Source of the DNA: Thermococcus celer Vu 13 = JCM 8558
GTDB lineage: Archaea > Methanobacteriota_B > Thermococci > Thermococcales > Thermococcaceae
DNA: 64,000 bases
Reading direction: 5' to 3'
NCBI RefSeq assembly: GCF_002214365.1
Contig: NZ_CP014854.1
Coordinates: 682,001-746,000, forward strand
Below are positions 21,267-22,506 of this stretch, piece by piece (the first letter of the stretch is position 1; each line of letters starts with the position of its first letter). The notes below the pieces were generated by a model that saw nothing but the letters and a program-made list of their open reading frames with translations, did not search any database and was not told the DNA's origin. A program made the translations under genes and the position numbers.

Positions 21267-21352
21267 TTTGCACTCAGACTGCAAACTCTTTTCAATTTCT
21301 TTGCAGTTGAACTGCAAAATCTTTATAAGTACCCTTGCACTATTAATGCACA
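21267..21352 (+). promoter_or_regulatory. Three 19-bp palindromic operators around a TATA box
   Basis: Three related inverted repeats occupy the whole gap before the ATPase gene. Site 1 (21267-21285) has arms TTTGCA and TGCAAA around 7 bases; site 2 (21300-21318) is a perfect 9+1+9 palindrome with arms TTTGCAGTT and AACTGCAAA; site 3 (21334-21352) is weaker, with core TTGCA and TGCA arms. Centres are 33 and 34 bp apart. The TATA box CTTTATAAG (21320-21328) lies between sites 2 and 3, and site 3 covers the expected transcript start and the ATG. This is the geometry of a cooperative repressor site; the binding protein is unknown, possibly the ATPase itself. Confidence 0.7.
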
Positions 21353-22506
21353 TGATTGAGTTGCAGAACCCTTGGTGGTTCGACGAGCCCGACAGGGACT
21401 GGGAGCTCTTCGATAAACTCACCTATCGCCTCAGGCCGGGATGGCTCGATGGGCTCTCCCTTAGACCGTTCTCGCTCAACTTCGTCGTCGGCCCGAGGAG
21501 GGTCGGAAAGACCCTCGGGATAAAGCTCCTCATCAGGGAACTTCTCGAAAGGGTCAAAAGCCCGTACGGGGTCTTTTACTTCAGCTGTGACGTCGTCGAG
21601 GATTACAACGGGCTCCTGGAGGTCCTCAACGAGTACCTCAAGGTGAAGAGGAGGAAGAAGCTCGGGAGCGCGTTCATATTCCTCGACGAGGTGAGCCTCG
21701 TCAGGGACTGGTGGAGGGCCCTGAAGTTCCTCATCGACAGGGGAGAGCTGAGGAACGACGTCGTTACGGTGACCGGCTCGATTTCCCTCACCCTCGGGAG
21801 GCACTTCGAGACGTTCGGAGGGAGACGGGGGAGCGGAAGGACGGTCGAGGTGATGCCGCTGAGCTTCCACGACTATTACGGCCTCTTTTACGATGACTTC
21901 TTCCCCTCAAAGGCCGAGGAGGTGTTTGAGAACTACTTAGAAACGGGCGGTTATCTGGCCTACCTCAACGGGACGCTGAAGGTCGAGGAGCTCGTCGGCT
22001 TCCTGAAGGCCGATATACGGGCCCTGGACCGTTCCACGGACCTCGCGAGGGAGCTGATGGGTGCGTTACTTGATAAGGCCCCGTCACCCCTTTCCTTCAA
22101 CTCACTGGCCAAGGCCATCGGGATCTCCCCCCACACCGCGAGGGATTACGTGGAGCTCTTCGAGGCCCTACACGTTCTCCTCCAGGTTCCCTACCTCGGG
22201 GGCGACGGAAAGGTCTACCCCAGGAAGGAGCGGAAGCTCATCCTGCGCGACCCGCTGATAGCCCGGGCCATGGGGCTCTGGACGGGGAAGGGCATCGACA
22301 GGGCCGTTCTCTACGAGTGGCTCGTTCAGGAGCACCTCCGGCGGAAGTTCGGCGAGGTCTACTATTACAGAAACTCCCACGAGGTCGATGCGATAGCCGG
22401 GGGGATTAAGGTCGAGGTCAAGTCCGGGGAGAGGAGGGGGCGTTATCCGAGGGACGTTAGGGTTCTCGCGGGTAAGGACGTGCCCGCCTTTCTGTACTCC
22501 CTTTAG
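21346..22506 (+). CDS. AAA ATPase with DUF4143-type C-terminal region
   Basis: About 386 residues. Walker A is [14 protein letters not shown] and Walker B is [11 protein letters not shown], followed by a sensor-like VTVTGSIS, the arrangement of AAA_14 ATPases. The second half has a helix-turn-helix-like stretch ([20 protein letters not shown]), then a nuclease-like end [21 protein letters not shown], which resembles the PD-(D/E)XK core of DUF4143 proteins (D, then E-V-K). Such ATPases are common and variable in Thermococcales, and their role is unknown. I chose ATG 21346; ATG 21352 is equally possible. The promoter is overlaid by three palindromes. The stop overlaps convergent tiaS by 4 bases. 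Confidence 0.82.

What the first reader, a model, noticed from the sequence alone, without database searches (positions are those of the whole stretch)
21267..21352. Three phased palindromes across a DUF4143 ATPase promoter
Three 19-bp inverted repeats with TTTGCA/TGCAAA arms are spaced 33-34 bp centre to centre, bracket the TATA box and cover the start codon. The first begins right after the dys stop. This precise arrangement suggests a dedicated repressor, perhaps the ATPase itself through its helix-turn-helix-like region, and it is not a known archaeal operator to me.
Basis: partly seen in the sequence, partly recalled or inferred. Interest (0 to 1): 0.6.

Follow-up and report, generated by a model that had tools for sequence, protein, structure and literature searches.

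The report
Self-regulating ATPase with private DNA switch
The three mirror-image DNA sites in front of this archaeal gene are most likely the docking sites through which the gene's own product, a suspected antiviral ATPase, switches itself off, and the same layout with a different "password" sequence recurs in front of related genes across archaea and, as a different kind of repeat, in bacteria.

Summary
Observation confirmed. Three 19-bp palindromes (axes 21276, 21309, 21343; spacing 33/34 bp) flank the TATA box of an AAA_14+DUF4143 ATPase. The third ends on the A of the probable start codon, 21352.

The exact motif occurs in this 1.87-Mb genome only here. It is not a chance local feature. 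All 20 orthologues examined keep it at several loci and no neighbour gene travels with it. Paralogue clades keep the same layout (palindrome–TATA–palindrome, 32–35 bp) with a different, clade-private sequence. A motif-blind scan finds such a pair in 87 of 101 family promoters, always at 32–35 bp, and in none of about 158 other promoters. Related bacterial genes carry 32/33-bp direct repeats.

Operator similarity between clades is tracked best by the ATPase's own helix-turn-helix (residues 249–269), not by the rest of the protein. A held-out test agrees: distant proteins from another archaeal lineage sharing helix SPHTA carry the same TTTGCA operator although they are only 36% identical elsewhere.

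Best explanation: autorepression by the ATPase through its winged helix. Binding and repression are inferred, not shown. The family is PADLOC's unvalidated defence candidate PDC-S01. I judge this a new variant of a known kind (autogenous operator).

The parts
21267..21285 (.). Operator palindrome 1 (TTTGCA-N7-TGCAAA), axis 21276, starting right after the dys stop codon
   Evidence: exact; position -101 in most orthologues
21300..21318 (.). Operator palindrome 2, axis 21309; its right arm overlaps the BRE
   Evidence: exact; arms 84-100% conserved and centre mostly 32-47% in 19 clade A promoters
21314..21321 (+). Probable BRE (GCAAAATC), overlapping the right arm of palindrome 2
   Evidence: sequence; assignment from general knowledge of archaeal promoters
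21322..21329 (+). TATA box TTTATAAG, about midway between palindromes 2 and 3
   Evidence: sequence; conserved in relatives
21334..21352 (.). Operator palindrome 3 (two mismatches), axis 21343, over the predicted transcription start and ending on the A of ATG 21352
   Evidence: conserved at -33 in orthologues
21352..22506 (+). AAA_14 + wHTH + PD-(D/E)XK (DUF4143) ATPase, probable start ATG 21352 (in-frame alternative ATG 21346)
   Evidence: Pfam; PADLOC PDC-S01; AlphaFold2 model (residue numbers from ATG 21346)
22093..22188 (+). Winged-helix coding part, residues 250-281 (helix 251-258, recognition helix 262-274 [15 protein letters not shown], wing 278-281)
   Evidence: model; co-varies with the operator

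Best explanation
The three palindromes are an autogenous operator array. The ATPase encoded downstream binds them through its own winged helix-turn-helix, probably as dimers on neighbouring sites held in register by a fixed 32-35-bp step. Copy 2 overlaps the BRE and copy 3 the transcription start and start codon, so binding should block TBP/TFB and RNA polymerase and keep expression low. Each ATPase clade has its own operator 'password', read by its own recognition helix, so co-resident paralogues need not cross-regulate. Shown here: the array, its conservation, its exclusivity to this gene family, and the co-variation with the wHTH. Inferred: physical binding, dimerisation, the direction of the effect (repression) and any inducing signal.
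For: Single-target motif: in the own genome exact only here. In 61 Thermococcus genomes 18 of 26 exact matches lie at ATPase promoters, 5 more at the dys locus in genomes lacking that ATPase, and the reversed control pattern gives 2. Phylogenetic footprint: arms conserved, centres variable. Layout conserved while sequence changes: 87 of 101 family promoters score >=15 and all 87 have 32-35-bp spacing, 76 of them exactly 34; about 158 non-family promoters give none at that spacing. Only the ATPase travels with the operator: no neighbour is shared by more than 3 of 10 clade A loci away from dys. Co-specificity: in a scan of 377 eight-residue windows, 13 of the 15 that best track operator similarity start in residues 249-264, controlling for overall distance, permutation p = 0.0005, the floor of the test. 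Held-out check: L261-L263 carry TTTGCA..TGCAAA and helix SPHTA, yet are about 36% identical to the window protein outside the HTH and closer to other clades. L204 likewise pairs an E-type helix with an E-type operator although its body belongs elsewhere. All 20 proteins with SPHT in the main set have TTTGCA-type operators. AlphaFold2 model: AAA+ followed by wHTH, pLDDT 92.8; best Foldseek hits are DNA-bound Orc1/Cdc6.
Against: No binding, footprint or expression data. Permutations ignore phylogeny, so p-values are indicative; comparison between windows of the same protein partly controls this. Clade C and a few others fit the palindrome model less well, clade H has a single palindrome, and the L029 clade scores within shuffles. 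Orphan operator pairs persist in genomes without the matching ATPase, more intact than simple decay might predict.
Confidence: 0.8

Rival explanations
1. A separate, unlinked transcription factor represses the ATPase gene through these palindromes (as Phr, TrmBL1 or Lrp-type regulators do at other Thermococcales promoters).
For: Archaeal repressors of other families bind inverted repeats at the TATA box or start site (PMC4158304).
Against: It would need a different factor for each clade, each with one target, each following the ATPase between loci and genera; no co-travelling gene was found. Operator similarity tracks the ATPase's own HTH. The motif is not TATCAC-N5-GTGATA or TACT-N3-AGTA.
Confidence: 0.1
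2. The ATPase binds the array, but the array is not primarily an off-switch: it is an assembly platform or origin-like iteron array for an Orc1/Cdc6-like AAA+ protein, or a self-recognition mark for a nuclease.
For: Nearest folds are Orc1/Cdc6; fixed 32-35-bp step in archaea and 32/33-bp direct repeats in bacteria; conserved PD-(D/E)XK residues E324, D348, E357, K359.
Against: Sites are placed around BRE/TATA/start rather than freely. Genomes hold up to 13 DUF4143 genes, unlike origins, and no replicon genes accompany them.
Confidence: 0.07
3. Chance or compositional palindromes in AT-rich promoter DNA, or RNA hairpins.
For: Short palindromes are common in AT-rich promoters; shuffles give pairs of moderate score.
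Against: Shuffle and control tests; two of the three copies lie upstream of the predicted transcript, so an RNA element cannot explain them; 20 orthologues keep the arms.
Confidence: 0.02

Closest known systems
Autoregulated archaeal repressors (Lrs14, Lrp-like regulator of P. furiosus, T. kodakarensis Tgr; PMC4158304)
   Same: Inverted repeats at the BRE/TATA box or transcription start, product proposed or shown to act on its own promoter
   Different: Those are small or sugar-sensing transcription factors; here the likely regulator is an AAA+ ATPase with a nuclease-like domain, one target, a 33-34-bp array, and a private operator per clade
PDC-S01, PADLOC candidate single-gene defence (NAR 2026, PMC12988326)
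   Same: Same protein family: HMM E = 2.5e-29; ATPase fused to PD-(D/E)XK as described there
   Different: No promoter array or autoregulation was found in the passages read; defence activity is not experimentally validated
Archaeal Orc1/Cdc6 initiators
   Same: AAA+ followed by a winged helix that binds repeated DNA sites; best Foldseek hits (2qby, 2v1u)
   Different: No detectable sequence similarity in PDB, low TM-scores (0.3-0.4), extra PD-(D/E)XK domain, many copies per genome
Autorepressing ParA-type partition ATPases (RepA of repABC plasmids, PMC4492784, listed; detail from general knowledge)
   Same: An ATPase that represses its own operon
   Different: Unrelated ATPase fold and plasmid context; not examined here beyond the title and abstract

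Membership tests
AAA_14 / DUF4143 (COG1373-type) ATPase | Significant Pfam matches to both domains | tested here: met
   PF13173 74.3 bits (cut-off 27), PF13635 42.7 bits (cut-off 28.1)
PDC-S01 candidate defence | Match to the PADLOC PDC-S01 models | tested here: met
   E = 2.5e-29, (no curated cut-off given)
PDC-S01 candidate defence | Antiviral activity | not testable with these tools
   Reported as not validated for most PDCs (PMC12988326)
Autogenous operator | Conserved inverted repeats overlapping core promoter elements | tested here: met
Autogenous operator | Gene product has a DNA-binding domain whose specificity matches the operator | tested here: met
   wHTH in model; co-variation and held-out cases; indirect, comparative
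Autogenous operator | Product binds and represses its own promoter | not testable with these tools
   needs EMSA/footprint and reporter or knockout
TrmB/TrmBL1 (TGM) regulon | TATCAC-N5-GTGATA or TACT-N3-AGTA at the promoter | tested here: not met
   sequence against the consensus in PMC4158304
Orc1/Cdc6 origin system | Sequence homology to Orc1/Cdc6 and a replication origin | tested here: not met
   no PDB sequence match at E 0.1; only fold similarity; origin function not tested

The most novel reading that the evidence does not exclude
DUF4143 ATPases across archaea and bacteria share a fixed assembly geometry on DNA of about 33 bp per step. Each lineage carries a swappable operator code, so that several co-resident candidate defence ATPases form mutually insulated self-silencing switches. 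The array would act as a sensor: titration or ATP-state change during infection releases the ATPase-nuclease from its own promoter.
Probability: 0.2. Interest if true: 0.85.

Novelty: new variant of a known kind. Interest (0 to 1): 0.7.

Why it matters
PDC-S01 is reported as the fourth most common defence-type system across prokaryotes (PMC12988326), yet nothing about its control was found in the library searched (DUF4143 occurs in 1 of 5.39 million papers). The promoter arrays give an immediate handle: they predict which DNA each protein binds, which residues set the specificity, and that paralogues in one cell are kept apart by private codes. This is a natural helix-to-operator data set with about 20 diverged pairs, directly testable in vitro.

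Tried and rejected
A generic two-palindrome score with central positions included was too insensitive and was replaced by four-arm concordance. The idea that the array is one end of a mobile element (att-like) was dropped: 3' flanks of ATPase genes hold no matching pair except one orphan (L056). Rfam found no RNA family near orphan sites. TGM/TrmB operators do not match. NCBIfam gave no match.

Full report
1. The observation. The sequence holds three 19-bp inverted repeats at 21267-21285, 21300-21318 and 21334-21352. Their axes (21276, 21309, 21343) are 33 and 34 bp apart. The first two match TTTGCA-N7-TGCAAA exactly; the third has two mismatches. The TATA box TTTATAAG (21322-21329) sits midway between copies 2 and 3. 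The right arm of copy 2 overlaps the likely BRE (GCAAAATC, 21314-21321). Copy 3 covers the region where transcription should start and ends on the A of ATG 21352. That ATG, not the one at 21346, is conserved in relatives, so the message is probably leaderless. The exact motif occurs nowhere else in the 1.87-Mb genome, and 60 shuffles never approached the observed pair score.

2. The gene. The reading frame encodes AAA_14 plus DUF4143. An AlphaFold2 model from 45 family members is confident (pLDDT 92.8, pTM 0.89). It shows an AAA+ domain (about 43-200), a winged helix-turn-helix (231-281, recognition helix 262-274) and an alpha-beta domain (319-385). The last keeps E324, D348, E357 and K359 in invariant or nearly invariant columns, the pattern of a PD-(D/E)XK nuclease (inference). 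Residue numbers count from ATG 21346. Foldseek's best PDB hits are archaeal Orc1/Cdc6 bound to DNA, at low TM-scores. PADLOC assigns the protein to PDC-S01, a candidate single-gene defence. A 2026 survey calls it the fourth most common defence across prokaryotes and describes an ATPase fused to PD-(D/E)XK, without experimental validation (PMC12988326).

3. Orthologues keep the operator, and only the ATPase travels with it. In 20 clade A genes from several genera the palindromes stand at about -101, -67 and -33 relative to the conserved NPWW codons, with few exceptions. Arm positions are mostly 84-100% conserved while the centre of copy 2 mostly falls to 32-47%. About half of these genes sit next to dys or tiaS, the others elsewhere. 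Among ten loci away from dys no neighbour gene is shared by more than three. In 61 Thermococcus genomes the exact motif occurs 26 times: 18 at ATPase promoters and 5 at the dys locus of genomes that lack this ATPase. One more (G024) has the same sequence as one of those but was not fetched, and 2 are unexplained; the reversed control pattern occurs twice.

4. Paralogues keep the layout but change the sequence. Upstream regions of related ATPases show other palindromes in the same places: TGTAAAGT, TGAGAACT, TTGATACT, TTGGTAAT, GTGAAAGT, TGGACTAT half-sites and more. A motif-blind scan that allowed any spacing from 20 to 50 bp was run on 101 family promoters. Of these 87 scored 15 or more, and every one of the 87 had a spacing of 32-35 bp (76 at 34). 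Of 163 control promoters, 5 scored that high at such a spacing. By sequence all five are promoters of this same family that had slipped into the control set, so about 158 true controls give none. The three paralogues in the same genome show pairs at 34, 33 and, weakly, 34 bp. PF01637 ATPases of the same genome do not. Family members chosen only by their PF13635 score mostly behave the same way.

5. Beyond Thermococci. In other archaea the pairs again lie mostly at 32-35 bp. In relatives of a Lachnospiraceae bacterium, 16 of 18 strong promoter repeats have a period of 32 or 33 bp and are direct repeats of private sequences. A deep geometric constraint on the bound protein is the simplest reading (inference).

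6. Who reads the operator. If the ATPase reads it, its helix-turn-helix should co-vary with the operator more than the rest of the protein does. Eighteen representatives below 62% identity were compared, most with operators extracted automatically. Of 377 eight-residue windows, 13 of the 15 that best track operator similarity, after controlling for overall distance, start within residues 249-264. Permutation p was 0.0005, the floor of the test, and stayed there when hand-set operators or close pairs were removed. Phylogeny is not modelled, so p is indicative, but all windows share the same tree. Three genes fetched later serve as a held-out test. L261-L263, from relatives of a Methanomethylicota genome, carry TTTGCA..TGCAAA and the helix SPHTA, as in the window. 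Outside the HTH they are about 36% identical to the window protein and closer to other clades. L204 similarly pairs a TTGATACT operator and an SHKTVREY helix, like clade E, with a body that belongs near other clades.

7. Mechanism. The evidence supports an autogenous operator array read by the ATPase's own winged helix. Because copies 2 and 3 cover the BRE and the start site, occupancy should repress. TrmBL1 represses from sites downstream of the TATA box and activates from sites upstream (PMC4158304, PMC4706686), so bracketing on both sides argues for blocking. Dimers, cooperativity and the inducing signal are inferences.

8. Limits. There are no binding or expression data. Orphan operator pairs survive in genomes without the ATPase: partners differ at 2.5 rather than 1.2 of 16 arm positions on average (p = 0.004, one outlier included). 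They thus decay, but slowly. Some clades fit poorly (C, H, L029). Literature was searched only in an open-access library, where DUF4143 appears in one paper, so earlier descriptions elsewhere cannot be excluded.

Noticed in passing
L169, L171, L172, L175 (dys locus) and L176-L184, L186-L188 (next to yjbQ): Orphan operator pairs (palindrome-TATA-palindrome, about 34 bp) remain in Thermococcus genomes that lack the matching ATPase; L170 joins an operator and ATG directly to an ATPase C-terminal fragment. They look like gene-loss scars but are better preserved than expected.
   Followed up: partly
L189, L193, L196, L207, L217-L220, L224, L228-L232, L234, L239: Bacterial DUF4143 ATPase promoters carry direct repeats with a 32/33-bp period, each with its own sequence.
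   Followed up: partly
L029, L140-L142, L151-L155 (own genome C1:231k and orthologues): Another DUF4143 clade has one large inverted repeat (GTTAAG..GAGGTAAA / TTTACCTC..TTAAC) centred on the TATA box instead of phased palindromes.
   Followed up: no
L022, L023, L178, L180-L182: A conserved GC-rich hairpin-like element (GCCCGGGGAG..CCGCC..GGCGG..GGGCGGGTTATTACCCCC) lies beside clade D ATPases and orphan sites; no Rfam match in the three loci searched (L178, L023, L181).
   Followed up: partly
L190, L194, L197, L200 (one Aenigmatarchaeota contig): Four DUF4143 matches lie within 8 kb of one contig, nine in a 0.8-Mb genome.
   Followed up: no
L119: A clade G ATPase gene is interrupted by a stop right after its NPW codons, while its operator pair is intact.
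   Followed up: no
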